Source: Candidatus Gastranaerophilales bacterium (GTDB lineage: Bacteria; Cyanobacteriota; Vampirovibrionia; Gastranaerophilales; Gastranaerophilaceae). Taken from it: a stretch of DNA of 32,572 bases. The DNA is taken from positions 1 through 32,572 of the forward strand of contig CALUTG010000017.1 of assembly GCA_944323615.1 (NCBI GenBank). The letters run 5' to 3'. The notes below the pieces were generated by a model. That model saw only the letters and a program-made list of their open reading frames with translations. It was not told the DNA's origin and made no database searches. The first letter of the stretch is position 1; every line of letters begins with the position of its first letter. Shown piece by piece: positions 11,062 to 32,095 of this stretch. The translations under genes and the position numbers were made by a program.

Positions 11062-12900
11062 GTGAATAAAAATCAAATGGCTTATAATAACGATACAGCT
11101 AAGAATAGTATTAAAACGGTTACGTCCCCTGTAAAGCAAGGCAAGCTTGTATCAAAAGTCAATGCTCTTACTATAAATCCTGCGTCTGTGCATATTCAAA
11201 ATCCTCATGCTCTGGTTTTTAATAACGAAAAAGGAACCACTCTTAATTACAAGCAAGTAGTTGATGAAATGGTTAAACTTTTTAATATAGATAATCTTTC
11301 GGATTTTTACAGCAAAATTTACGGAATAATAAATCAATCAATTGATTCAAGTTTTTATGCAATCGGTTTATATAAAGATAAATCTAACTGTATTAACCTA
11401 AGATTGCATGACAAACTGGGAAATAACTATTCAACAAAAGTTTTTCTAAAAGATATAGATAACCCGATTGTCAAAGTATTTAACAGTCATGAGCCTGTTT
11501 TTGTAGAAAAAGAGGACTTTCTTAAACTTGCATACTACAAGAATTATTCTACGGCGATACTGCCGCTGATTTCTGTAAATAAATGCATAGGGGTATTTAT
11601 TATTGAAGATGATTCTGCCCGTCAAAATATAACACTTTATTCGCTTATTGCAAACTATATGGCTCTATATGTTCACAATTTTTACTTGATAGAAAAGAGT
11701 GATGAATATGCAAACACTGATCGTTTAACACTTTTGTACAGCCATCGCGGTTTTCAGGAGATGCTAACCCGTGAATTGGAGCGTGCAAAAATTAATAAAC
11801 AGAAAACTTCCATTATAATGATGGATATAAGTAATATTACAAAAATCAACCGTGAATTCGGCCACGCAAAAGGTGATGAAGTTATTAAAACTGTTGCCGA
11901 AAAAGTGCGCCAAAATATTAGAGAAGGTGATATAGCAGGCCGCTACGGCGGAGATGAAATTGCAATAATACTTCCTAATACTTCAGTTGAGCAGGCAAAG
12001 TATGTTGCTGAATATTTAACATATTCTCTTTCTTGCTGTTTTATCGATGATGTTGGACCCATTAAGGTCTCGGTTGGTGTTTCCACTTATCCGGACTGCT
12101 CCGAAGATAAGGAAAAACTTTTAATACTGGCTGAGCAGGCAATGTATATTTCACAGGCAAAAGGTTATAAGGACGGCATGTCTGCAATTATTAGCTCTGC
12201 AGATTTTAATTTCTGGGATGATGTTGCTCTAAAATCTTATGCAGAAGTCGTTTCAAAACGACATTCTCAACTTGGGATTAATTTTGAAGAAGATTTAATC
12301 GAAAAATTCAATGCAGACCATAAATTATCGGGTACAAAAATTTGGGATATAGCGACATCCCTGGCAGGCGCAATTGATGCTAAGGATCCGTATACTAAAG
12401 GTCATTCAACTTCTGTATCAAGATATGCGGAAGCTCTTGCAAGAGCAATTAATCTTCCTGAAAAAGAAGTTGACAGAATTACTCTGGGAGCTCTTCTTCA
12501 TGACGTCGGCAAAATCGGTATTCCTGAGACTGTATTGAAAAAAGAAGGCCCTCTTTCTGATGACGAGTGGAAAATTATGAAACAGCACCCTGTTATAGGT
12601 ACGGAAAAGGTTCTGCAGCCAAATCCGGCATTACGCGATTTAATTCCTATAGTAAAATATCACCATGAAAGGATTGACGGTAAAGGTTATCCGGAAGGTT
12701 TAACAAACGGAAATATTCCTCTTGCTGCCAAAATCGTTGCAGTTGCCGATACTTACCATGCTCTTATTAGTGACAGACCGTACAGAAGAGGGATGAATAT
12801 GGAGAAGGCAATTTCTATTCTGGAAGAAAATGCTGGAACACAATTAGATAGAGACCTTGTCAGAACGTTTATTCAAATAGCGCCCTCATTAGGTGTATAG
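11062..12900 (+). CDS. GAF-GGDEF-HD-GYP cyclic-di-GMP turnover protein
   Basis: A 612-aa cytoplasmic protein that both makes and breaks c-di-GMP on paper. Order: a disordered 60-residue lead, a GAF-like sensor (about 75-215), GGDEF (about 220-375) with R-Y-G-G-D-E-I and an upstream R-E-G-D that fits the inhibitory I-site exactly five residues before GGDEI, then HD-GYP (about 430-600) with H-D-V-G-K-I-G and H-H-E-R-I-D-G-K-G-Y-P. Both active sites look intact. Start GTG 11062 follows AAGGTG. A perfect terminator follows the stop. The preceding kinase-like gene is a plausible partner. Confidence 0.93.
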   Translation: MNKNQMAYNNDTAKNSIKTVTSPVKQGKLVSKVNALTINPASVHIQNPHALVFNNEKGTTLNYKQVVDEMVKLFNIDNLSDFYSKIYGIINQSIDSSFYAIGLYKDKSNCINLRLHDKLGNNYSTKVFLKDIDNPIVKVFNSHEPVFVEKEDFLKLAYYKNYSTAILPLISVNKCIGVFIIEDDSARQNITLYSLIANYMALYVHNFYLIEKSDEYANTDRLTLLYSHRGFQEMLTRELERAKINKQKTSIIMMDISNITKINREFGHAKGDEVIKTVAEKVRQNIREGDIAGRYGGDEIAIILPNTSVEQAKYVAEYLTYSLSCCFIDDVGPIKVSVGVSTYPDCSEDKEKLLILAEQAMYISQAKGYKDGMSAIISSADFNFWDDVALKSYAEVVSKRHSQLGINFEEDLIEKFNADHKLSGTKIWDIATSLAGAIDAKDPYTKGHSTSVSRYAEALARAINLPEKEVDRITLGALLHDVGKIGIPETVLKKEGPLSDDEWKIMKQHPVIGTEKVLQPNPALRDLIPIVKYHHERIDGKGYPEGLTNGNIPLAAKIVAVADTYHALISDRPYRRGMNMEKAISILEENAGTQLDRDLVRTFIQIAPSLGV

Positions 12901-14858: not shown

Positions 14859-16751
14859 ATGAACATTATCGCAAATGAACTGAAACTTCCTAAGCAGAAT
14901 ATGAAGTTTGGTGAAGCATCCCCGCAACCAACTGCCCCTGTTGCAGAACCTCCTGTAAGTAAACCGGAAGACGGCATGAATGCTCTTTATGCACAAGGTT
15001 TGAACAATCAGCTTTCTTTCCAGGGCGGAGTTAATCTTGCGGCCTTGAAGAAAAAAGGTTTACAAGCAATGATGGCGCTTACATTACTGGGCGGAGCAGC
15101 AATGACACAATCATGTTCAAAATACTTAGAACCAAGCCATATTTATATTGAGCATGGCTCAGACACTGATATTACAATTATATATGATGATTCTAAGTGG
15201 CAGGCAATGTTTGAAAAGATGATGGAAATGTGGCAAATGATGCTTGAACAGCAACAGATAACAAATGATCAGCTTACTCAGTTGTCACAGTACATGCTTC
15301 AAATGATGCAGATGATGCAGGAAGGACAGTTAACCGCAGAACAGTTCTATGCTCAAATGTATGAATTCATGCTGAATAATGAAAATAACCAAAATATTAT
15401 TATTGATTTACTGGTACAAAACGGTAAAACACAGGAAGAGGCTAATAAATTAATTCAGTCTTTAATTGAACAAGTTCAAATGGGACAAATTTCTGCTGCG
15501 GAAGCTATGGAGCAGATTATGAAAGAGCTTGGCGATATCGGCAGCACATTAGATAGTATTCTCGAACAGCTTAAGAATATCAGTGAAGAACTTACTCAAT
15601 TCCATAATGATTATAATGAAGGAAAAGATCAAACATTGGATCTTTTAGGCGATATTTATGAACAGGGTACAATTAATACTCAAATTCTTCTTTCCTTAAA
15701 TGATCATGTTGCACAAATGTCTAAAAACTTACAAGAACTTCAAGCAAGCTTTGAAGAATTAAAAGTAATTGTTAATGATGATACCAAGTTTAATGAATTA
15801 ATGGAGCAGTTGAAGAAACTGGAGGCTGGTTCAATTGATTACCAGAAGTTTGAAGATATGTTCAAGCTGTTAGGATTTACTTTAACTGATGCAATCAACA
15901 TGTCAAAAGATGAACTTCTTAATGCAATTAAGGATTTTGAAAATACATATATTAAAAATGAAGAAAATCAAAATGAAATGCTTCAAAATATCAATAACAA
16001 ATTAGATATTGTTATAAACTTCCCTGGAATGGATCAAGAAGGAGTTATTGATGCAATTAAGGATTTAACAGATGCTGTTAATAACGGTAATGCAGATGTA
16101 ACAAATGAATTGAATAAGATTCAAGAACAACTTGACAAAATTCAAAAATCAATTGATACTTTGATGGATCAATTCGCAGAACATACATCAATGGTAAATT
16201 CTTACTTAAATGCGTTTAAAGATCAATTCAGCGAGGCTCTGGAATTGTTGACAAATATTTCAGGTGATATGACCGAACTGAAGAACCAGCAGACAATTGC
16301 TAATAGTTACTTGAACTCTTTAATGAAACAATTAGATGAATTAACTGTTATAATTAATGAAATTAAAGATTCAACAACTAACCCTGGCGGCGGTTCTTCA
16401 ATTACAATCGAAGATCTTGAAAATCTTCTGAAAAATATTAATGAAACTAATTACAACAGATATAAAGAATTGATTGAAAACTTGGGTATCCAAATTGGCG
16501 GCTCAACAGCTACCATTGAAGATTTACTCAAACAAATTAACGAAAAAATGGACAACCAAAAAGACTATACAGAACAATTAAATAAAATTATTGAAATGTT
16601 AGACGGTATTGATTTATCTTCACCGGATTACAGTGACAAGTTAGACAGAATCATTGAACTTCTTGAAAACTTCAAGTGTAACTGCGACTGCGGTGCAGAC
16701 AGCGGAGATAATGAAGGTATCATAGGTGATTTAGGCGACCTTTTAGGTTAA
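14859..16751 (+). CDS. Long coiled-coil protein with internal lipobox-like anchor
   Basis: A 630-aa Gln/Asn/Glu/Met-rich protein not recognised by name. AAAAAGGAG upstream supports ATG 14859. The first 65 residues are polar and Pro-rich and contain two F-x-[GA]-type motifs (M-K-F-G-E-A at 15-20, L-S-F-Q-G-G at 52-57). A basic patch and hydrophobic segment follow (64-84), ending in A-M-T-Q-S-C86-S, which looks like a weak lipobox placed unusually far from the N-terminus. Residues about 110-600 are long helical coiled coils with leucine heptads and recurrent N-E-L-N-K-I-Q-E-like units. The end has a cluster C-N-C-D-C and a G-D-L-G-D-L-L-G tail. A surface or envelope-spanning structural role is guessed. 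Confidence 0.8.
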   Translation: MNIIANELKLPKQNMKFGEASPQPTAPVAEPPVSKPEDGMNALYAQGLNNQLSFQGGVNLAALKKKGLQAMMALTLLGGAAMTQSCSKYLEPSHIYIEHGSDTDITIIYDDSKWQAMFEKMMEMWQMMLEQQQITNDQLTQLSQYMLQMMQMMQEGQLTAEQFYAQMYEFMLNNENNQNIIIDLLVQNGKTQEEANKLIQSLIEQVQMGQISAAEAMEQIMKELGDIGSTLDSILEQLKNISEELTQFHNDYNEGKDQTLDLLGDIYEQGTINTQILLSLNDHVAQMSKNLQELQASFEELKVIVNDDTKFNELMEQLKKLEAGSIDYQKFEDMFKLLGFTLTDAINMSKDELLNAIKDFENTYIKNEENQNEMLQNINNKLDIVINFPGMDQEGVIDAIKDLTDAVNNGNADVTNELNKIQEQLDKIQKSIDTLMDQFAEHTSMVNSYLNAFKDQFSEALELLTNISGDMTELKNQQTIANSYLNSLMKQLDELTVIINEIKDSTTNPGGGSSITIEDLENLLKNINETNYNRYKELIENLGIQIGGSTATIEDLLKQINEKMDNQKDYTEQLNKIIEMLDGIDLSSPDYSDKLDRIIELLENFKCNCDCGADSGDNEGIIGDLGDLLG

Positions 16752-20831: not shown

Positions 20832-22655
20832 CTATCCTTTGTAGTATCCGACCTGGTTTCTACCGTGTTCTTTAGCGTAGTATAGACCTTTGTCCGCATA
20901 TTCTATCAATTCCTGTGCATTTTGAGCATTGTCCGGAAATGTGGCAACTCCGACACTAATAGTTACATGACCTGTTTCTGTTGCATTAAGCTGGAACGGC
21001 TTTTCTGCAACTGCGTGCAGGATTCTGTTAGCGTTATTAAGAACTTCTGCTGCTGTCGTATTAGGAAGAATTATACTCATTTCTTCACCGCCGTATCTGC
21101 ATACATAATCAGTTGTACGGGAATTCTTTTTAAGAGTTTGGGCTACCTGTCTTAGAACTGCATCACCGGCTTGGTGTCCGTATGTATCATTGAATTTTTT
21201 AAAGAAATCAATGTCTACTATTATCAAAGAGAACGGTTGTCCGTATCTTTTTGAAAGATCGATTTGTTTTCTTAAAGTATCCTGAAAATACCTGTGATTG
21301 TATAACTCGGTCAACCCGTCTACGGTTGCAAGTTTGTACTGGTATTCAAAATCACGTGACTTGATAAGGTATTTAGCAAGATAAGAAAGCGCAAAGGCAA
21401 GAATAATCGAGATTACCGGCAGTACAACGGGAATCCATAAGTTCAGTAGTTCCATCAGGTAATAGCCGATAAACAGATATGCAATTCCAAAGAGAATTGT
21501 AGACAAGACCGCAAAAATAGTGGATTCGGAGAGCATTACAATAAACCCTACAATCGCCACAACTCCTGCTATTATCAAGATATTAACAAAAGGGCTGGTC
21601 TGTTGAATAAAATTATTATCAATAATATTGTTTAAGAAGGTTGCATGAACCTCCACTCCCGGATAGACACCTTCCTGAACAGGAACACTTTTTGTATCAT
21701 GAAGGCTCATTGCGGTCGTGCCTATAATTATTATTTTATCCTTAAAGTTGAATGAAGAAATATCTTTCCCCTCCATTGAATTTACAACTTTGTACATCGG
21801 ATAATTTGTATGAGTTCCGCTCTGTCCGTACCAGTTAAGAATAGCATCTCCCTCGTTGGTAAGAGGAATACTTACATTAGAGCCTTTGAGGGTTGATGTT
21901 TTATCTAAAATATATGAATTTTGCGGAGTTTTGTTAACGATATTACCCCCTGCGAGGAAGGTTAAATAAGGATAATATTTACCCTTATATTCAAGAACAG
22001 GAGCAACTTTCCTTATAATTCCGTCGCTGCTTCTCATTACATTAGTCATTCCGACATATACTTTTCCATTGATTAGTTCGTTTAAAATAGGGCGGCAGTT
22101 AGAAAATCCGTATTTTTTTGAAATATCAATATCGGATTGATTATTAAGGTTAACTGAAAGTCTTTGCGGAAGTTCTGCCGGTTTTCTTAAATCAGCCGGC
22201 TGATTATCTAAATTCATCGATGTGTAAATATTATCATATTTATTCATTGTTTCCGTAAGAGCTTTATCAGCGCCCCCGGTTGCCTTAAGAGATTTTATAA
22301 ACATAAGGTCAAAAATAATGGCCTTAGGGTGGTCTTTTTCAAGATAGTTAATAATATCAGCATAAACGTTACGCGGAATAGGCCATTCTCCGTATTTATC
22401 CCAGAGCATTTCGAGACTTGCATCATCTATTGCAAGAACAACTATATCTTCATTCGGAAGGGGATGTTTATGCATAACTCTTAAAGTTTGTCTGTAGTCA
22501 AACGAACGGTTTTCTGCAACTTCAAAAAATGAGGTTATAACATTATTAAGGGTTTTATTATTCTGTAAAAGAACAAATCCTACAAGCAGCACCGCCATAA
22601 CAAGAAGCAAATAGGTCGCATATGTGAACCATTTGGTTTTTATAAACTTTTTCAA
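20832..22655 (-). CDS. CHASE2-GGDEF membrane diguanylate cyclase
   Basis: About 607 aa. An N-terminal membrane helix is followed by a periplasmic CHASE2 sensor (about residues 45-340, with D-I-V-V-L-A-I-D-D-A-S-L and F-K-D-K-I-I-I-I-G-T-T-A), three membrane helices, and a GGDEF domain with R-Y-G-G-E-E-M. R-T-T-D sits exactly five residues before it, so an I-site is present. It should make c-di-GMP on an extracellular cue. TTG 22655 is preferred, with GGGAGAG five bases upstream and an M-K-K-F-I-K beginning. The frame stays open to another TTG at 22745, which has no ribosome site. It is divergent from fliE. Confidence 0.9.
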   Translation of the reverse strand: MKKFIKTKWFTYATYLLLVMAVLLVGFVLLQNNKTLNNVITSFFEVAENRSFDYRQTLRVMHKHPLPNEDIVVLAIDDASLEMLWDKYGEWPIPRNVYADIINYLEKDHPKAIIFDLMFIKSLKATGGADKALTETMNKYDNIYTSMNLDNQPADLRKPAELPQRLSVNLNNQSDIDISKKYGFSNCRPILNELINGKVYVGMTNVMRSSDGIIRKVAPVLEYKGKYYPYLTFLAGGNIVNKTPQNSYILDKTSTLKGSNVSIPLTNEGDAILNWYGQSGTHTNYPMYKVVNSMEGKDISSFNFKDKIIIIGTTAMSLHDTKSVPVQEGVYPGVEVHATFLNNIIDNNFIQQTSPFVNILIIAGVVAIVGFIVMLSESTIFAVLSTILFGIAYLFIGYYLMELLNLWIPVVLPVISIILAFALSYLAKYLIKSRDFEYQYKLATVDGLTELYNHRYFQDTLRKQIDLSKRYGQPFSLIIVDIDFFKKFNDTYGHQAGDAVLRQVAQTLKKNSRTTDYVCRYGGEEMSIILPNTTAAEVLNNANRILHAVAEKPFQLNATETGHVTISVGVATFPDNAQNAQELIEYADKGLYYAKEHGRNQVGYYKG

Positions 22656-22948
22656 AACATCTCTCCCAACACTAAATTCTATTAGCAGTATAGTTAATTT
22701 TTCCGTTTTTTGCAAGGATTGTTGAACCAAACAGACCTTTTTCAATAAGAATATTATTGAGTTTCAGAAGCTCTGTCGACTTAAATAAATCTGTCGTATT
22801 TAACAAATATTTCAGCAAACACTCTTCATGTAAATTCACAGTTACAATTCCTTATAAAAATAACAATAATTATCACGGCAAAACTTTGACAAGACTTTAG
22901 AAATCATTAAAAAAGCTAGTACAAACAGATGATTTTTTAGAAAAATAC
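22656..22948. other. Divergent intergenic region between cyclase and fliE
   Basis: The gap is AT-rich. Part of it, 22656-22745, could be coding if the cyclase starts upstream. It holds a 7-base direct repeat TCTGTCG at 22772-22778 and 22790-22796, and an isolated TTGACA at 22886-22891 without a good -10 partner. Otherwise I see nothing clear before the sigma-28-like site. Confidence 0.4.
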
Positions 22949-22997: not shown

Positions 22998-23339
22998 ATG
23001 TTTAACGGATTTGTTCCAAGGTACGATTTAGAAGCGAGAATACAACACTCCAAGCTTGATTCCTGGGGTTATGATATTCCGTCTGCAAGAATGAGCCGTG
23101 TAGAAGAGCCGTCTACTGCAGATTTTTCAAGTGTGATGTCCGGTCTGGCAGAAAATTTAAATGCACAGATAGAAGCACCTGATAATTTGTTAAAAGATGC
23201 TATGATGGGCTCCGAAAATGTTGATGTTCACGATGTTATGACTGCAATGGCGAAAGCGGAGCTCAGTGTTACGGTCGCAACAACCGTGGTCGGAAAAGTC
23301 ATCCAAGCGTATGATAAAATTATGCAATTGCAGATTTAG
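22998..23339 (+). CDS. fliE: Flagellar hook-basal body protein FliE
   Basis: A 113-aa protein matching FliE, the adaptor between the MS-ring and the proximal rod. The C-terminal half is diagnostic: D-V-H-D-V-M-T-A-M-A-K-A-E-L-S followed by A-T-T-V-V-G-K-V-I-Q-A-Y-D-K-I-M-Q-L-Q-I. The N-terminus is a little longer than in enterics and starts M-F-N-G-F-V-P. AAAGGCGGTG gives a strong ribosome site. It is 53 bases before fliF and probably in one transcript with it, under the sigma-28-like promoter just upstream. FlgB and FlgC, the usual neighbours, are absent from the window. Confidence 0.85.
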   Translation: MFNGFVPRYDLEARIQHSKLDSWGYDIPSARMSRVEEPSTADFSSVMSGLAENLNAQIEAPDNLLKDAMMGSENVDVHDVMTAMAKAELSVTVATTVVGKVIQAYDKIMQLQI

Positions 23340-23392
23340 TATTCTCATAATCAATAAGTATGTGTATAATTTAATTATATAGGGAAGGATAT

Positions 23393-25060
23393 ATGGATTT
23401 TAAAAAGTTACTGGAAAATAAAGTTCTTTTAGCAGCCGTAGGCGGCGGTATTGTTCTTCTCTTGCTTATTTTTATTATATGCGGTGCGATAGCTGCCAAT
23501 TCAGGATCTAAAGGAAACGAAATTGATGTAAGCAATGAGCCTTTAAAAGAAGATGTTGACCTGCTTACAACTGATAATATGGGAAAAGCCCTTGAAATTC
23601 AGGCTTTGCTTGCAAGAAATAATATTGTTGCATCCCGTGCGGTTGACGGTACAAAATCAGTTTTGAGACTAAAAAAAGGCGACTGTACCCCGGGAATGAA
23701 AAAATGTACAACCGAGCAGAGGGACCGTGCCATTATGGTTATTGTAGAGAGCGGTTTGTATGACCAGAATGTAGGGCTGGAAGTTTTTGATAAAGGTGAT
23801 TTCACTTCTACAAAAGAAGATAAGAGAATAAGACTCGTAAGAGCAATGAACGGTGAATTATCACGCCTTATTAAGAGAATTGATGGCATAGAAAACGCGT
23901 CAGTATTTATTTCCATACCGGAACAGACAATGTTCTCTTCTATGCAAAAACCCGTTACCGCAACGGTTCAATTAACGGTTGCTGTTGGTCAGACTCTTAA
24001 TATGGGAACAATCAAAGCTGTTTCTAACTTGCTTTTAGGAAGTGTTTCCGGGCTAACATCAGAAAATATTTCAATTACTGATACAAACGGGCACGTATAT
24101 AGCAGTCTTATAGATGCACAATCAGAAATGCTTCAACGTATTCAGGAAAATGATAAATATATGCAGGAAAAAGTTCAGGCGCAGTTGAACAGACTTATTG
24201 GTGCCGGAAAATATGTTGCAACAGTAAGTACTTTTCTGAAGCAGGCTCCTGTAGAAAAATTTACTATAGAGTATGATCCGACAAGAAAAACTGCTGTCAA
24301 CGAGCAGACTTTCGCGGAAGGACTAGGAGATCAGACTCAGGACGTTAATAAAAACACTAATGCTGTTAGTGTTTATCTTCCAAACGGTTTACCTGCCGGA
24401 AGCTCTGATTCTACTCAGAACAGAAGTTATTCAAGAACTGCAAAAGAAACCCAGTACGGTGTAACTAAAGTTCAAACTAATGAATACATGTCACCGGGTG
24501 TTCTGGAAGAAATTTCTATCGCCGTAACTTTGGAAAAAGATGCGCTTCCGGTTGAGTTAACTCTTGAAGAATTAAAAGAACTTGTAGCACACGCAGCCAG
24601 CCCTAAGGCAGATCCTGATAATGTAACAATTGCATTTGCTGATTCTCTTGATCCGTTTATGGCTGCTGATAAAAATGTTAAAGCCCCTATTAAGGCTGAA
24701 CACGGTAATCCTTGGTGGCTTGCAATAGCTTTACTTGCCGGCGGTTTGTTCTTCGGACACAGAATCTTAACTCAGAAAATTAATGCTGCTAAGGCTGCTC
24801 AGGAAGAAGAAATGATAAGGCTGAGAGAACAAAATGAAGCTCAGGAAAAACAGTTAAAAGATTTGAGTCTGAATGCGGCAGATTTAATTGCCAAGCAATC
24901 ACAGCTTCAGCAAGGACTCCTTGAACAGCAGAACAGACCTGTTCTTAAATCGTCCGGAGCAGAAATAAGAGAAGCTTTAAGAGAACTTAAGCGCGAGTTT
25001 GAAGGCGTTGACGAGTCGGAAGCCGGCGAAAAAATCCGCAGCTGGATTGAGCAAGGGTAA
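23393..25060 (+). CDS. fliF: Flagellar MS-ring protein FliF
   Basis: A 555-aa inner-membrane ring protein, normal length. TM1 is at about 12-34. The YscJ/FliF ring-building domain follows (T-D-N-M-G-K-A-L-E-I-Q-A-L-L-A-R-N-N-I, then R-A-M-N-G-E-L-S-R-L-I-K-R-I-D-G-I-E-N-A-S-V-F-I). The beta-collar region is about 250-400, TM2 near 443-460 (W-W-L-A-I-A-L-L-A-G-G-L), and the cytoplasmic tail ends in I-R-S-W-I-E-Q-G, the FliG-binding end. An insert at about 100-108 with Cys-x6-Cys is unusual and could form a disulfide outside the membrane. No fliG follows. A hairpin block comes instead. Confidence 0.88.
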   Translation: MDFKKLLENKVLLAAVGGGIVLLLLIFIICGAIAANSGSKGNEIDVSNEPLKEDVDLLTTDNMGKALEIQALLARNNIVASRAVDGTKSVLRLKKGDCTPGMKKCTTEQRDRAIMVIVESGLYDQNVGLEVFDKGDFTSTKEDKRIRLVRAMNGELSRLIKRIDGIENASVFISIPEQTMFSSMQKPVTATVQLTVAVGQTLNMGTIKAVSNLLLGSVSGLTSENISITDTNGHVYSSLIDAQSEMLQRIQENDKYMQEKVQAQLNRLIGAGKYVATVSTFLKQAPVEKFTIEYDPTRKTAVNEQTFAEGLGDQTQDVNKNTNAVSVYLPNGLPAGSSDSTQNRSYSRTAKETQYGVTKVQTNEYMSPGVLEEISIAVTLEKDALPVELTLEELKELVAHAASPKADPDNVTIAFADSLDPFMAADKNVKAPIKAEHGNPWWLAIALLAGGLFFGHRILTQKINAAKAAQEEEMIRLREQNEAQEKQLKDLSLNAADLIAKQSQLQQGLLEQQNRPVLKSSGAEIREALRELKREFEGVDESEAGEKIRSWIEQG

Positions 25061-28220: not shown

Positions 28221-28451
28221 ATGGCAAAACAAGATCAAGATCGTAAAAAACGCAAGACCTGCTCATTTTGCGCAGATCACGTTGAATCAATCGATTACAA
28301 AGACGCAGCTAAGTTAAAAAGATATTTAACAGAAGCAGGAAAAATTATTCCTAGACGTGTTACAGGCAATTGTGCTATGCACCAGAGAATGATTGCTAAG
28401 GCTATCAAAAGAGCCAGAGAAGCTGCAATTATTAACTATGTTTTTGACTAA
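28221..28451 (+). CDS. rpsR: 30S ribosomal protein S18
   Basis: A 76-aa S18 protein, the usual size. It has the C-S-F-C pair near the N-terminus (residues 15-18) and the core [26 protein letters not shown], the rRNA-binding part that sits with S6 on the platform. A further Cys at position 51 with the C-x2-C could complete a zinc site. AAAGG lies upstream. A leader with a possible S6:S18 binding site precedes it. Confidence 0.96.
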
Positions 28452-28472
28452 TCAAAAGTCAGTATAAGTATT

Positions 28473-28502
28473 ATGGGAATGGCGGGTATCTTCCATTCCC
28501 AT
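28473..28502 (+). terminator. Hairpin after rpsR
   Basis: Perfect 10-bp stem ATGGGAATGG/CCATTCCCAT with a 10-base loop between rpsR and the 62-aa gene. No T-tract follows, so it probably attenuates or protects mRNA rather than ending all transcripts. Confidence 0.5.
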
Positions 28503-28544
28503 GTTCTCTAATGTGAAAGCAATTAATAAGAAAAGGACGAACTT

Positions 28545-28733
28545 ATGGATCACAAAATCACAATCAGATCAGACAGAAAAGACGATTACACCTTTCAGTA
28601 CAAAGGTGAAGACGTTACCTTAAAAGCAGGCAGTATTATAAGTATTGCAGACGGTCTTGCAGAAGTCGTTTTTCCGACGAGCAAAATGAAGATTGTTAAA
28701 AATCTGATTGTTATCAAAGATGATGAAAAATAG
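28545..28733 (+). CDS. Small hypothetical protein downstream of rpsR
   Basis: A 62-aa protein of unknown function at the place where rplI (L9) often follows rpsR. It is not L9. It looks like a compact beta protein, with a charged start (D-H-K-I-T-I-R-S-D-R-K-D-D), F-Q-Y-K-G-E-D-V-T-L-K-A-G and repeated short hydrophobic strands ending K-I-V-K-N-L-I-V-I-K. AAAAGGACG gives a ribosome site, and a strong terminator follows 18 bases after the stop, so it is the last gene of this cluster. RNA or protein binding would suit its size but is not shown. Confidence 0.75.
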   Translation: MDHKITIRSDRKDDYTFQYKGEDVTLKAGSIISIADGLAEVVFPTSKMKIVKNLIVIKDDEK

Positions 28734-28751
28734 TTAATATTATTGATTTAT

Positions 28752-28792
28752 TGCGGGGCGGACAGTCTTTCTGACTGTTTGCCCCGCTTTTT
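28752..28792 (+). terminator. Strong rho-independent terminator
   Basis: A 15-bp stem, GCGGGGCGGACAGTC against GACTGTTTGCCCCGC (two G-U pairs in RNA), loop TTTCT, then six T. It ends the rpsF-ssb-rpsR cluster. Confidence 0.92.
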
Positions 28793-28894
28793 TATAAATA
28801 AACTAGCCACTTATGCTATAGATAAAAATGTGTTATTAAAGTTAAATATAAGTATTAAATCTTTTTCATACTTCCAGCTATTCTTAATTCCAAC

Positions 28895-28916
28895 GAGCCT
28901 AAGGGCTCTTTTTTTT
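28895..28916 (+). terminator. Orphan rho-independent terminator
   Basis: GAGCC-TAAG-GGCTC followed by eight T. It is well formed but has no protein gene upstream after the first terminator. Confidence 0.85.
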
Positions 28917-28938
28917 ATCAATTTTTGTAACAATTTGC

Positions 28939-28966
28939 TTGACTGCAAAGTATGATATAATATTAT
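28939..28966 (+). promoter_or_regulatory. Promoter of the tandem small-protein genes
   Basis: TTGACT at 28939-28944, 16-base spacer, TATTAT at 28961-28966. The downstream 14 bases ATAGAGTATATAAA (28972-28985) recur exactly after the tuf -10 box. A GGGGG ribosome site precedes the first ATG. Confidence 0.55.
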
Positions 28967-28997
28967 ATATTATAGAGTATATAAAGGGGGTATTAAT

Positions 28998-29222
28998 ATG
29001 ATTTCACCAATAAAGGGTATTAGTGAATTTCACACTGTTAAAAATAATTATGCTAAAAAGGCGGTAAAAAAGGTTGTAGATGTGAATACAAATAAACCGA
29101 AAGGTTTGTCTAATACTCCTCTCAGGGCATTGAGTGAGGATGAAAAAAATAGTCTCCAAAGAGCCGCTGGTGCTATATGCGGAATGTCGGTGTTAGGGGT
29201 AACTTTGGGATTATCTTCATAG
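28998..29222 (+). CDS. Small PKGL-motif membrane-type protein 1
   Basis: A 74-aa protein, first of three tandem paralogues. Order: a short lead (M-I-S-P-I-K-G-I-S-E-F-H), a basic segment (Y-A-K-K-A-V-K-K-V-V), the shared motif P-K-G-L-S-N-T-P-L-R-A-L (34-45), an acidic turn (S-E-D-E-K), then a Gly/Ala hydrophobic end (A-A-G-A-I-C-G-M-S-V-L-G-V-T-L-G-L). It is probably inserted in the membrane with a cytoplasmic N-terminus. The strong promoter and GGGGG site suggest high expression. No known family comes to mind. A peptide toxin, a bacteriocin-like precursor or a small membrane adaptor are all possible. Confidence 0.7.
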   Translation: MISPIKGISEFHTVKNNYAKKAVKKVVDVNTNKPKGLSNTPLRALSEDEKNSLQRAAGAICGMSVLGVTLGLSS

Positions 29223-29315
29223 TAATATTCATTCAAACTTTCTTAAAATTTTTATGATAGAAGATTTCTAGAAATATTATGAGAAGTTATTAAGTTAAAA
29301 TTGAAAGGGAAACTA

Positions 29316-29567
29316 ATGATTACAGCAGTTCAAAGTTATACTAATTTTAATGGGCTAAAAAATATAAATGCAGCCAGGTCTCTGAAGAGAACGGTTGTGA
29401 AAAATGCCGCTCCGAAAGGTCTTACGCAATCTCCGTTACGAGCTTTAACAGATAAAGAAAAATCTGATTACTTAAAAATGGCAGCCGGTGCTTTAGTTGG
29501 TACGTCTGCTTTAACCTGTTTAACAGATTTCTGCAACGGATGCTCTATTGGCAGCAATATGATATAA
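29316..29567 (+). CDS. Small PKGL-motif membrane-type protein 2
   Basis: An 83-aa paralogue. ATG 29316 follows AAAGGGA by five bases. Residues 8-13 read Y-T-N-F-N-G, the F-x-G motif. Then come a basic segment (R-S-L-K-R-T-V-V-K), A-P-K-G-L-T-Q-S-P-L-R-A-L (32-44), T-D-K-E-K and the hydrophobic end A-A-G-A-L-V-G-T-S-A-L-T-C-L. Unlike copy 1 it has a Cys-rich tail (C-L-T-D-F-C-N-G-C-S-I-G-S). It lies 93 bases after copy 1 and 12 bases before copy 3. Confidence 0.72.
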   Translation: MITAVQSYTNFNGLKNINAARSLKRTVVKNAAPKGLTQSPLRALTDKEKSDYLKMAAGALVGTSALTCLTDFCNGCSIGSNMI

Positions 29568-29579
29568 TCTGGAGGAAAA

Positions 29580-29852
29580 ATGAAAACAGGGGCAGTTAAT
29601 AGCTATCAAATGCCATTTTATGGTATGAAAGTAAATAATTTGAAGAAAGTTAACAGAAATATTGTAAAAGTTTCTTGTGATAATCATCAAAGACCTAAGG
29701 GATTGACAACAAGCCCTATTAGGCGTGATTTAGATGATTTAGGAGATGAACCTTTTATGCAGGGTGTGTCAAGAGTTTCAGGGGCTGCCTGGTATTCATT
29801 CCTTGCTACTTTAGCCTGTGGCTGTCTCACAGGAATTTTTGAGTCATCATAA
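29580..29852 (+). CDS. Small PKGL-motif membrane-type protein 3
   Basis: A 90-aa paralogue, the most diverged. GGAGG lies upstream, within the 12-base gap from copy 2. V-N-S-Y-Q-M-P-F-Y-G-M-K at the start parallels V-Q-S-Y-T-N-F-N-G-L-K of copy 2. It keeps R-P-K-G-L-T-T-S-P-I-R-R (38-49), an acidic stretch (D-L-D-D-L-G-D-E) and a hydrophobic end with W-Y-S-F-L-A-T-L-A-C-G-C-L. A terminator for this gene lies 60 bases on, inside the convergent protease gene. Confidence 0.7.
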   Translation: MKTGAVNSYQMPFYGMKVNNLKKVNRNIVKVSCDNHQRPKGLTTSPIRRDLDDLGDEPFMQGVSRVSGAAWYSFLATLACGCLTGIFESS

Positions 29853-29888
29853 TTATTATACCAAGGGCGCTATAATACTTGTAAAATG

Positions 29889-30653
29889 TTATATAATATA
29901 GCAATTTAAATTATCTGCAAGATTGAGAATATCTTGCGGATAATTTTTTCCTGCCATTTGACCGGCAAAAAGTTCTGCAGCAAACTCGCTGCCGTCAATA
30001 TAAGAAATTGCTCTTTGAGATACAGTTTCTGCTATTCTTGTATAATCTCCGTATTTTTCAATTTCAGCGGCATTTTTTTGGGGAGTAAACCCCCTGAGAA
30101 ACTGCAGCCAGTGTCCTATTTCATGGAATAATATATGGTAGGGGCTGTCAGAAGAAAATATTCCCTTACTGTATCCTATAACACTTTTTTGCGGTGCGAC
30201 TTTATCCAGATTAGCAGGGAAAATAATAGGGGCCTCCTTTTGAGGATGGTATTTATAAATAGTTGAAAGTCCGCATGTTCCGAAAAATAAAAATGAGGGA
30301 AATAACAAGATATTACTAGGAAGCGGAATATCTTTTTCTTCTATTTTTTTTAATCCGTCATAAAAATACTGAGCCAGGTTTATGTTATTCTTTAATCTTA
30401 TATTTACCCCTTTTTGTTCTAATTTTTTTTCTATATCAAGAACTGTTTGTTCTGTAGAGTAACTTGAATGTTTTATTTTTTTAGAAAGACCCATAAGACA
30501 TTTTTCAAATAAATATTGTTTATTTGTAACCGTTAAACTTGGATTGGGGCATTTCCCAAAACTTATACCTGAATAAAATTTGCTCCTCCTGTCAATTGGG
30601 AGATTGGATGCGGTGCTGCTGTTAAGTATATAAGGTTGAATCTTAATTTCCAT
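29889..30653 (-). CDS. HExxH zinc metalloprotease-like protein
   Basis: A 254-aa protein with a gluzincin-type site: H-I-L-F-H177-E178-I-G-H181, then Glu223 and Glu227 in G-S-E-F-A-A-E about 45 residues later as possible third zinc ligand. The lead to residue 30 ends in G-I-S-F-G-K (F32), the F-x-G motif. There is no Sec signal peptide. ATG 30653 is preferred, since it overlaps the acyltransferase stop by 11 bases (coupled translation). A longer frame to 30707 lies within that gene. The substrate is unknown. It faces the three small genes and is the last gene of a coupled operon. Confidence 0.75.
   Translation of the reverse strand: MEIKIQPYILNSSTASNLPIDRRSKFYSGISFGKCPNPSLTVTNKQYLFEKCLMGLSKKIKHSSYSTEQTVLDIEKKLEQKGVNIRLKNNINLAQYFYDGLKKIEEKDIPLPSNILLFPSFLFFGTCGLSTIYKYHPQKEAPIIFPANLDKVAPQKSVIGYSKGIFSSDSPYHILFHEIGHWLQFLRGFTPQKNAAEIEKYGDYTRIAETVSQRAISYIDGSEFAAELFAGQMAGKNYPQDILNLADNLNCYII
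29911..29949 (+). terminator. Terminator inside the convergent protease gene
   Basis: TTATCTGCAAGAT (29911-29923), loop TGAGAAT, ATCTTGCGGATAA (29931-29943), one G-U pair, then TTTTTT. It acts on the plus strand, ending the small-protein run, while on the minus strand it encodes the last residues of the protease. Confidence 0.7.
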
Positions 30654-31782
30654 CCCACTTTTCCTCAATTGAATAAACGGTATCAACATCTTTTTCTGTT
30701 CCGACATTTTCTATGGATTCGGCCGCAAGCTTTTTGCATGCTGTCAGATTTTCACACAGTATACCGGCTATGTATTCTCTGCTCTTTTTTATGTCAACCG
30801 GAGTATTATTATCTGTTATAATTCTGTATTCTTCATTTATGGCTGGGGTGGTATCTAAGAATTCTACTAATTTAGGATCAGTAAACCTTTTATCTATTGT
30901 ACCGGGAGTAAATAAAACATTATTCCCTTCTTTTTTAAAGTATAAAGGCTCTCCGATATGAATACTTCCAACCTTATTTTTATATGCAAATCCGAGCGGG
31001 ACGACCTTAACCCGATTTTTTTTCTTTACAACTGCCTTAATAATATCGGCAACTCCGGGCTGGAACTTATATTGAGGTTCTAATGTGCTAAAAGCGCACA
31101 TCCTGCCTTCTGGAAATATAAATAAATTGATTTTATCTTCCGCAAGTTCATTTACTAATTTTGATGTAACTTTTCCGTTGTAAATATGATTGGTACAGTG
31201 AATCGCCGCATCTACCCCGACGGCTCCCCATTTTTCTGCCATCAGCTGTTTCTTTTCTCCCGCAGTTTCTATTATGTCTTTATTTAAAATAATTTTAGAG
31301 ATCGGGTGATTTTCACCTTTGTCTTTGTAAAGATATTCTCTCAAAAGCAAAGCATTAAAGAAATTTAACATCTTTGCATCTTCTTTTTGCTTATCATGAT
31401 TCATGATAAAAATGCAGCTTTCGTTAGAATCAGTGATATTTTGCAGTTCATTATTTTCAATGTTTATTTCTACTTCTTTACCTTTAGTAAGCAGTCTTGA
31501 AATATTATATCCAAACAAGGTATGCGCTAGAGAGCCTTCCTTCAAATTTTGTATTAAATTAATATCAATTGGGTCCGGAAGATTTTTGTTTAATAACTTG
31601 TTTTTAAGGGTCGTATATTTCAATGAAATGTTGATAAGAAAATCAGACAGTTTGTTAGTCAAAATCCGCCCTTTTTGTTCAAGTTGTATTGTTTTTTTCT
31701 CGGTATATTTATAGAAATTTTCCGGCATAGAAGCCTTGAAGTTTAGATAGGAAGCACGATGCCCAATTTTATTGATTTTCAT
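30643..31782 (-). CDS. PlsC-like acyltransferase
   Basis: A 379-aa protein resembling glycerolipid 1-acyl-3-phosphate acyltransferases. Motif I reads F-I-M-N-H129-D-K-Q-K-E-D, where the second residue of the usual H-x4-D is replaced by Glu or shifted by one. Motif II is G-A-V-G-V-D, motif III F-I-F-P-E-G-R (213-217), and motif IV V-V-P-L-G-F. Residues 13-17 read L-N-F-K-A, the F-x-A motif. No membrane helix is strong. It may acylate a lipid or peptide. It overlaps the small gene before it by 14 bases and the protease after it by 11, so the three are co-translated. Confidence 0.8.
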   Translation of the reverse strand: MKINKIGHRASYLNFKASMPENFYKYTEKKTIQLEQKGRILTNKLSDFLINISLKYTTLKNKLLNKNLPDPIDINLIQNLKEGSLAHTLFGYNISRLLTKGKEVEINIENNELQNITDSNESCIFIMNHDKQKEDAKMLNFFNALLLREYLYKDKGENHPISKIILNKDIIETAGEKKQLMAEKWGAVGVDAAIHCTNHIYNGKVTSKLVNELAEDKINLFIFPEGRMCAFSTLEPQYKFQPGVADIIKAVVKKKNRVKVVPLGFAYKNKVGSIHIGEPLYFKKEGNNVLFTPGTIDKRFTDPKLVEFLDTTPAINEEYRIITDNNTPVDIKKSREYIAGILCENLTACKKLAAESIENVGTEKDVDTVYSIEEKWDGN

Positions 31783-31987
31783 TAGATATCTTTCTGCTTG
31801 GTAATTTAGTTTGTTTTTTTAGTCCATATAAAAATGCGGCAACTTTACTTAATTTTTTTGTTTTTTTATGCGCGACGGAAGTGTGACGGCTGACATTATT
31901 TACAACAAAATAAGGCTTCACGTCTTTTTTAGGAAGCTTAAATACAATTCTTGCTGTAAAATTTACCGTTGATGGTTTTATGTCCAT
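31769..31987 (-). CDS. Small basic protein upstream of the acyltransferase
   Basis: A 72-aa Lys/Arg-rich protein, unrecognised. Residues 8-12 are V-N-F-T-A, the F-x-A motif. A long basic region follows (K-L-P-K-K-D-V-K-P, H-K-K-T-K-K-L-S-K) with a short hydrophobic stretch (V-A-A-F-L-Y-G-L). The stop overlaps the acyltransferase start by 14 bases, so it is first in a coupled operon. Upstream, on the minus strand, the leader is AT-rich with a TAGGAG ribosome site. Confidence 0.65.
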   Translation of the reverse strand: MDIKPSTVNFTARIVFKLPKKDVKPYFVVNNVSRHTSVAHKKTKKLSKVAAFLYGLKKQTKLPSRKISNENQ

Positions 31988-32067
31988 AATATTGTATAAC
32001 TCCTAAAAAATATTTTTGCCTGTTTTTTTACAAATCTTAAGGTTTAAAGATATCCTTGTACTATGGA

Positions 32068-32095
32068 TTGACAATATTTTTTCAGATACTAAAAT
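32068..32095 (+). promoter_or_regulatory. tuf promoter
   Basis: TTGACA at 32068-32073 (perfect -35), 16-base spacer, TAAAAT at 32090-32095. It shares ATAGAGTATATAAA (32094-32107) with the small-protein promoter. AAGGAG lies nine bases before the start codon. Confidence 0.75.

What the first reader, a model, noticed from the sequence alone, without database searches (positions are those of the whole stretch)
28998..29852. Three tandem paralogous small proteins with a new-looking PKGL[ST]x[ST]P[LI]R motif
The three short genes share a layout: short lead (with F-x-G in two), basic segment, P-K-G-L-[S/T]-x-[S/T]-P-[L/I]-R, acidic turn, Gly/Ala hydrophobic C-terminus. The tails diverge: none, Cys-rich, and Trp/Cys. 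A conserved middle with variable ends, tandem copies and a strong promoter suit a secreted or membrane peptide system such as toxin, signal or modified peptide. This is inference.
Basis: partly seen in the sequence, partly recalled or inferred. Interest (0 to 1): 0.75.

Follow-up and report, generated by a model that had tools for sequence, protein, structure and literature searches.

The report
Tandem small proteins with shared N-terminal tag
Three neighbouring small genes in an uncultured gut relative of cyanobacteria are real copies of one another, found so far in this one species only, and their first 15 or so residues match a start-of-protein tag seen on many unrelated proteins of this bacterial group, which may be an undescribed export or targeting signal.

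Summary
The three ORFs (28998-29222, 29316-29567, 29580-29852, +) are genuine tandem paralogues (BLASTP 4e-15, 3e-8, 1e-6), and PKGL[ST]x[ST]P[LI]R is conserved at protein level with synonymous codon change. No homologue was found in 288 family genomes, 65 genus genomes, a phylum sample, GTDB, viral contigs, phages or plasmids, so this is a one-species orphan family. The genes lie in a ~3.1-kb species-specific island between a ribosomal-operon terminator and the tuf promoter; the two closest species have only short DNA repeats there. The more general part is the 'lead': M-x-[IV]-x-x-[IVT]...[NSP]-F-x-[GAS]. It occurs above chance at the start of many unrelated non-Sec proteins in this genome and in other Gastranaerophilales, is kept in orthologues whose adjoining linkers diverge, and in a GH13 enzyme stands where a paralogue has a Sec signal peptide. 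Most likely the three are small tagged membrane proteins delivered by a signal-directed route. The candidate machine is a flagellin-less, flagellar-type export apparatus found almost throughout the family, whose FliE and FliF genes are in this window. That link is inferred. 'Secreted or membrane' is partly supported; toxin, signal or modified peptide is not.

The parts
28998..29222 (+). small protein 1 (74 aa), MISPIKGISEFHT...PKGLSNTPLR...hydrophobic C-terminus
29316..29567 (+). small protein 2 (83 aa), MITAVQSYTNFNG...PKGLTQSPLR...Cys-containing tail
29580..29852 (+). small protein 3 (90 aa), MKTGAVNSYQMPFYG...PKGLTTSPIR...Trp/Cys tail
29097..29125 (+). PKGL[ST]x[ST]P[LI]R motif, copy 1
29412..29440 (+). 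PKGL motif, copy 2
29694..29722 (+). PKGL motif, copy 3
28939..28966 (+). promoter-like site TTGACT-16-TATTAT upstream of copy 1
   Evidence: consensus match only
28895..28916 (+). terminator-like hairpin GAGCCTAAGGGCTC-T8, conserved in the two closest species; left edge of the island
28753..28793 (+). terminator of the upstream ribosomal operon
29889..30653 (-). metallopeptidase-like protein (HEIGH), likely start MEIKIQPY...SGISFGK after GAGGAAAAGTGGG; the longer reading starts at 30707
30643..31782 (-). acyltransferase-like protein, N-term MKINKIGHRASYLNFKAS
   Evidence: PF01553, 21.6 bits, cut-off 23
31769..31987 (-). 72-aa protein, N-term MDIKPSTVNFTAR
32068..32095 (+). tuf promoter TTGACA-16-TAAAAT, conserved in close relatives; right edge of the island
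28221..28733 (+). rpsR and the conserved 62-aa gene; ancestrally followed by tuf after about 108 bp
22998..25060 (+). fliE-like and fliF-like genes of the second, flagellin-independent export apparatus (candidate machinery)

Best explanation
The three proteins are duplicated, species-specific small membrane-associated cargo proteins. Shown: each has an N-terminal stretch resembling a lineage-wide signature (M-x-[IV]-x-x-[IVT]...F-x-[GAS]; copy 1 is degenerate), a basic middle, the family-private PKGL[ST]x[ST]P[LI]R element, and one Gly/Ala-rich hydrophobic segment. They sit in an island in which all six genes start with this tag or a degenerate form of it. Inferred: the tag is an export or targeting signal read by a non-Sec route, most plausibly the second flagellar-type export apparatus that flagellin-less members of the family retain. 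The basic/PKGL part would bind a chaperone or partner and the hydrophobic tail would insert into a membrane. The diverging tails would be the specialised ends.
For: Tag is above chance: own genome 25 observed against 5.9 in shuffles (maximum 15 of 500), flagellin-less G073 7 against 1.7, 80 named relatives 11 against 3.4, E. coli 0 against 1.1. F-motif proteins are independently enriched for I/V at position 3 with I/V/T at 6 (p 2.5e-5) and for no acidic residue in the first 12 (p 4.6e-5), compositional features reported for type III substrates in PMC3338616. In GH13 orthologues the tag (72% mean identity) is better kept than the adjoining linker (57%), and GH13 paralogues have a Sec signal peptide at that place. 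At the same rpsR-tuf site two species carry one C-terminal domain (83% identical) on different tagged N-termini. Other small tagged proteins share the tag, basic linker, Gly/Ala segment layout. Second FlhA is full length in 96 of 97 family genomes; the 10 flagellin-negative genomes tested keep a FliF.
Against: No secretion or localisation data exist. The tag was defined after looking at this genome, with a loose regular expression; copy 1 and the metallopeptidase match it only partly. In G188, same genus, the enrichment is weak (5 against 0.9 with one pattern, 3 against 1.3 with the other). A looser version of the pattern also gave 3 against 0.8 in E. coli. Tagged genes are not generally clustered with each other, and tag presence could not be tested in a genome lacking the apparatus because the apparatus is nearly universal in the family. 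Two tagged proteins have a later lipobox-like segment, which fits a Sec route or an N-in membrane topology. Some tagged enzymes (GH77) are usually cytosolic. The hydrophobic segments are weak (best 19-residue mean 1.3-1.55) and the structure model is uninformative (pLDDT 51).
Confidence: 0.4

Rival explanations
1. The tag is a docking or sorting motif inside the cell (for example onto a membrane complex, scaffold or compartment) and the small proteins are inner-membrane anchors with the tag facing the cytoplasm; nothing is secreted.
For: Many small tagged proteins have one hydrophobic segment after a basic linker, and two tagged proteins have a lipobox-like Cys further in. Tagged GH77, GH13, HAD and HNH enzymes have plausible cytosolic roles.
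Against: GH13 paralogues replace the tag region with a Sec signal peptide. Composition is depleted in acidic residues and Leu and rich in Asn, Ser, Pro and Gln, as in type III substrates. No scaffold candidate was found.
Confidence: 0.3
2. Young orphan genes with no selected function beyond the cell's general tag habit: a species-specific duplication array that may be neutral or short-lived.
For: No homologue in any other held genome. The two closest species carry only DNA repeats at the site.
Against: Protein-level conservation among the three copies with codon change, good ribosome sites, dN/dS below 1 between copies though dS is saturated.
Confidence: 0.2
3. A secreted antibacterial peptide, toxin-antitoxin or modified-peptide (RiPP) cluster.
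For: Small size, tandem copies with a constant middle and variable tails, neighbouring peptidase-like and acyltransferase-like genes.
Against: No GG leader, no peptide exporter, no RiPP enzyme, no match in Pfam, PADLOC or a convincing one in PHROGs. The neighbouring enzymes carry the same tag and so look like cargo rather than maturation enzymes.
Confidence: 0.1

Closest known systems
Type III-secreted effectors of Pseudomonas syringae (N-terminal composition patterns, PMC3338616)
   Same: Aliphatic residue or Pro at position 3 or 4, no acidic residues in the first 12, Ser/Asn-rich start, no Sec signal; a type III export apparatus is in the genome.
   Different: Here there is also a recurring sequence element ending in F-x-[GAS], which the P. 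syringae patterns do not include; the apparatus is flagellar-type, not an annotated injectisome; secretion is not shown.
Chlamydial Inc proteins (recalled, not tested)
   Same: Lineage-specific small proteins thought to pair an N-terminal type III signal with membrane insertion.
   Different: Incs have a bilobed pair of long transmembrane helices; these have one short, weak hydrophobic segment. No sequence relation was tested or seen.
Flagellar genes of Melainabacteria (Di Rienzi et al. 2013, PMC3787301)
   Same: That paper lists two flhA genes among the shared set and a genome (MEL.A1) that lacks filament, cap and L/P rings but keeps other flagellar genes.
   Different: It read this as ongoing reduction. 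Here all 10 flagellin-negative genomes tested keep FliF and a full-length second FlhA, which suggests a retained function.

Membership tests
Tandem paralogous family PKGL[ST]x[ST]P[LI]R | Significant pairwise similarity with an invariant motif | tested here: met
Tandem paralogous family PKGL[ST]x[ST]P[LI]R | Homologues in other species | tested here: not met
Gastranaerophilales N-terminal tag M-x-[IV]-x-x-[IVT]..F-x-[GAS] | Aliphatic residues near positions 3 and 6 followed by F-x-[GAS] within about 25 residues | tested here: inconclusive
   Copies 2 and 3 fit the loose pattern; copy 1 has ISPI but F-H-T instead of F-x-[GAS]
Type III secretion substrate | No Sec signal; no acidic residue in the first 12; aliphatic residue or Pro at position 3 or 4 | tested here: inconclusive
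   Copy 1: no Sec signal, Pro at 4, but Glu at 10. Copy 2: no acidic residue, but T3/A4. Copy 3: no acidic residue, but T3/G4 (sequences)
Type III secretion substrate | A type III export apparatus in the genome | tested here: met
Type III secretion substrate | Export dependent on the apparatus | not testable with these tools
   needs an experiment
Chlamydial Inc-like membrane effectors | Bilobed hydrophobic domain of two long helices | tested here: not met
   only one weak segment of about 19 residues
RiPP or class II bacteriocin precursors | Double-Gly leader, or modification enzyme and peptidase-transporter nearby | tested here: not met
   sequences have no GG; searches show no such enzyme in the island
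Anti-phage defence genes | Match to PADLOC models | tested here: not met

The most novel reading that the evidence does not exclude
Gastranaerophilales use an undescribed N-terminal signal (M-x-[IV]-x-x-[IVT]...F-x-[GAS]) to send dozens of unrelated proteins per genome, including this species-specific trio, out of the cell through a flagellin-less flagellar-type export machine that nearly every member of the family keeps: a type III secretion system of gut commensals that earlier work read as flagellar remnants.
Probability: 0.25. Interest if true: 0.85.

Novelty: new variant of a known kind. Interest (0 to 1): 0.5.

Why it matters
If the tag is an export signal, many of the unnamed proteins of a common, uncultured gut lineage could be assigned to one secretion route by their first 25 residues, and the retained 'flagellar' genes of non-motile members would have a function. 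The three small proteins would then be lineage-specific secreted membrane proteins. If the tag is only an internal docking motif, it is still a simple handle on a poorly known proteome.

Tried and rejected
Homologue searches by protein, profile and DNA motif in genus, family, phylum, GTDB, viral contigs, phages and plasmids found nothing; weak hits such as L004 (RNA polymerase beta') and L026 (with stops) were inspected and dismissed. PDB profile hits to designed armadillo proteins have no matched stretch that passes on its own and were dismissed. AlphaFold with three sequences gave pLDDT 51, so no fold search was run. Simple F-G or F-x-G counts alone are only slightly raised near the N-terminus; the signal appears when combined with the aliphatic positions. 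Clustering of tagged genes genome-wide: 1 pair against 0.6 expected, so the six-gene island is unusual rather than typical. Cyanobacterial out-group sequence could not be fetched; E. coli was used as a control instead. Paper searches found no description of the tag.

Full report
WHAT IS THERE. The window is contig 17 of a 1.93-Mb, 90-contig genome. The relatives found through the conserved 62-aa gene are labelled mostly Candidatus Gastranaerophilales or Melainabacteria, or are unnamed gut MAGs, so the host is a gut, non-photosynthetic relative of cyanobacteria. The three ORFs at 28998-29222, 29316-29567 and 29580-29852 are real. They are 74, 83 and 90 aa long and mutually similar (BLASTP 4e-15, 3e-8, 1e-6). 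Copies 1 and 2 are 42% identical over 67 residues and align into the hydrophobic segment; copy 3 is more distant.

MORE THAN CHANCE. The motif pattern hits only these three places in 288 genomes, with no hit for the reversed control. Conserved residues use different codons and third positions change most; NG86 dN/dS is 0.36-0.58 where computable, but dS is above 1 and so unreliable. Each gene has a purine-rich ribosome site. A modest promoter match precedes copy 1 and terminators bound the unit on the left. Together these support expressed, protein-constrained genes.

DISTRIBUTION. No homologue was found in 65 genus genomes with the three-row profile, 288 family genomes, 59 phylum genomes, GTDB contigs, viral contigs, plasmids or phages. 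The family is known from this genome alone. Collections may omit near-identical genomes, and the window's genome is a 96%-complete assembly.

LOCUS. In the genus rpsR is followed by a 62-aa gene and, in many genomes, tuf about 108 bp later. In the window tuf is 3.48 kb away. In the two closest species the left terminator and the tuf promoter are conserved almost letter for letter, and only a few hundred bp with a repeat (GCTACGCACGTAGACC...) lie between them. The window therefore carries a species-specific island, about 28920-32066. Other species carry different single genes at the same place, and two of those (L197, L199) encode proteins whose N-termini fit the tag described next.

THE TAG. 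Across 1.44 Mb of this genome the combination M-x-[IV]-x-x-[IVT]...[NSPQLH]-F-(x)-[GAS] occurs in 25 non-Sec N-termini against 5.9 in composition-preserving shuffles (maximum 15 of 500); in flagellin-less G073 7 against 1.7; in G188 (same genus, small sample) 3 against 1.3, which is not significant; in loci of 80 named relatives 11 against 3.4; in E. coli 0 against 1.1. Proteins chosen only by the F element are enriched for the aliphatic pair (p 2.5e-5), for lack of acidic residues in the first 12 (p 4.6e-5) and for N/S/T/Q (p 3.9e-5); L, I, V and Y controls show less or none of this. Examples: MNISPITSYKQNNNQPSFQA, MKVSPTSINPNFSA, MTIRPITSVSFNG, MISAVSGVSFKG. In seven GH13 orthologues the tag (72% mean identity) is better conserved than the next 50 residues (57%), while the enzyme domain is at 92%. 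Related GH13 proteins in this genome and in G073 have a Sec-type signal peptide where the tag stands. Tagged proteins include a DSP-type phosphatase, HNH, GNAT, HAD, mTERF-like, GH77 and GH13 proteins. All this suggests a transferable N-terminal signal.

HOW THE THREE PROTEINS FIT. MITAVQSYTNFNG and MKTGAVNSYQMPFYG resemble tagged N-termini; MISPIKGISEFHT has the ISPI half and a degenerate end. The other three island genes start MKINKIGHRASYLNFKA, MDIKPSTVNFTA and MEIKIQPY...GISFGK (the last with the F-G element at about residue 31). Other small tagged proteins share the layout tag, basic linker, Gly/Ala hydrophobic segment. The hydrophobic segments here are weak (best 19-residue mean 1.3-1.55).

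CANDIDATE MACHINE. All 65 genus genomes match the FlhA family and most have two full-length members. In the family the flagellar FlhA is patchy while a second full-length FlhA is in 96 of 97 genomes (G045 shows only partial matches). Ten flagellin-negative genomes keep a FliF-type ring protein, and in G073 its gene, with a FliE-like gene, lies beside the second FlhA. The equivalent FliE-like and FliF-like genes are in this window at 22998-25060. SctQ/FliN-, FliP-, FliQ-, FliR- and FliH/SctL-like genes occur elsewhere in the genome; the second FlhA scores below both the FlhA and the HrcV curated cut-offs. Di Rienzi et al. 2013 (PMC3787301) reported two flhA genes in the shared set and read a partial flagellar set in MEL.A1 as reduction. 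The link between tag and apparatus is inference: it rests on co-occurrence and on composition like that of type III substrates (PMC3338616).

VERDICT. 'Secreted or membrane system' is partly supported; toxin, signal and modified-peptide readings are not. The trio alone is a narrow orphan family; the tag it shares with many proteins is the part worth following.

Noticed in passing
window 22998-25060: FliE-like and FliF-like genes of a second export apparatus that is kept in family members without flagellin.
   Followed up: partly
L283 10368-11840 (G188 contig 11): A ~490-aa protein with homology to the FlhA cytoplasmic domain only is widespread in the genus and family beside the full-length FlhA proteins.
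   Followed up: no
L158 3814-5586 and L134 256-1782 (own genome): Two GH13 paralogues, 41% identical, one with the N-terminal tag and one with a Sec signal peptide.
   Followed up: yes
L048 12369, L157 12561, L044 7696 (own genome): Three dispersed paralogues of about 110 aa with a nearly identical tagged start MNISPITSYKQNNNQPxFQAVNM.
   Followed up: no
L189 7189-7950 and L190 3336-3987: Short repeats (GCTACGCACGTAGACC...) lie between the 62-aa gene and tuf in the two closest species, where the window has its island.
   Followed up: partly
window 14859-16751; L138 7685-8533: Tagged proteins with a later hydrophobic lipobox-like segment (GGAAMTQSC; LLLFLGC), hard to reconcile with simple type III export.
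   Followed up: no
window 11062-12900 and 20832-22745: Two GGDEF proteins (one with an HDIG-type domain) in the same contig as the export-apparatus genes.
   Followed up: no
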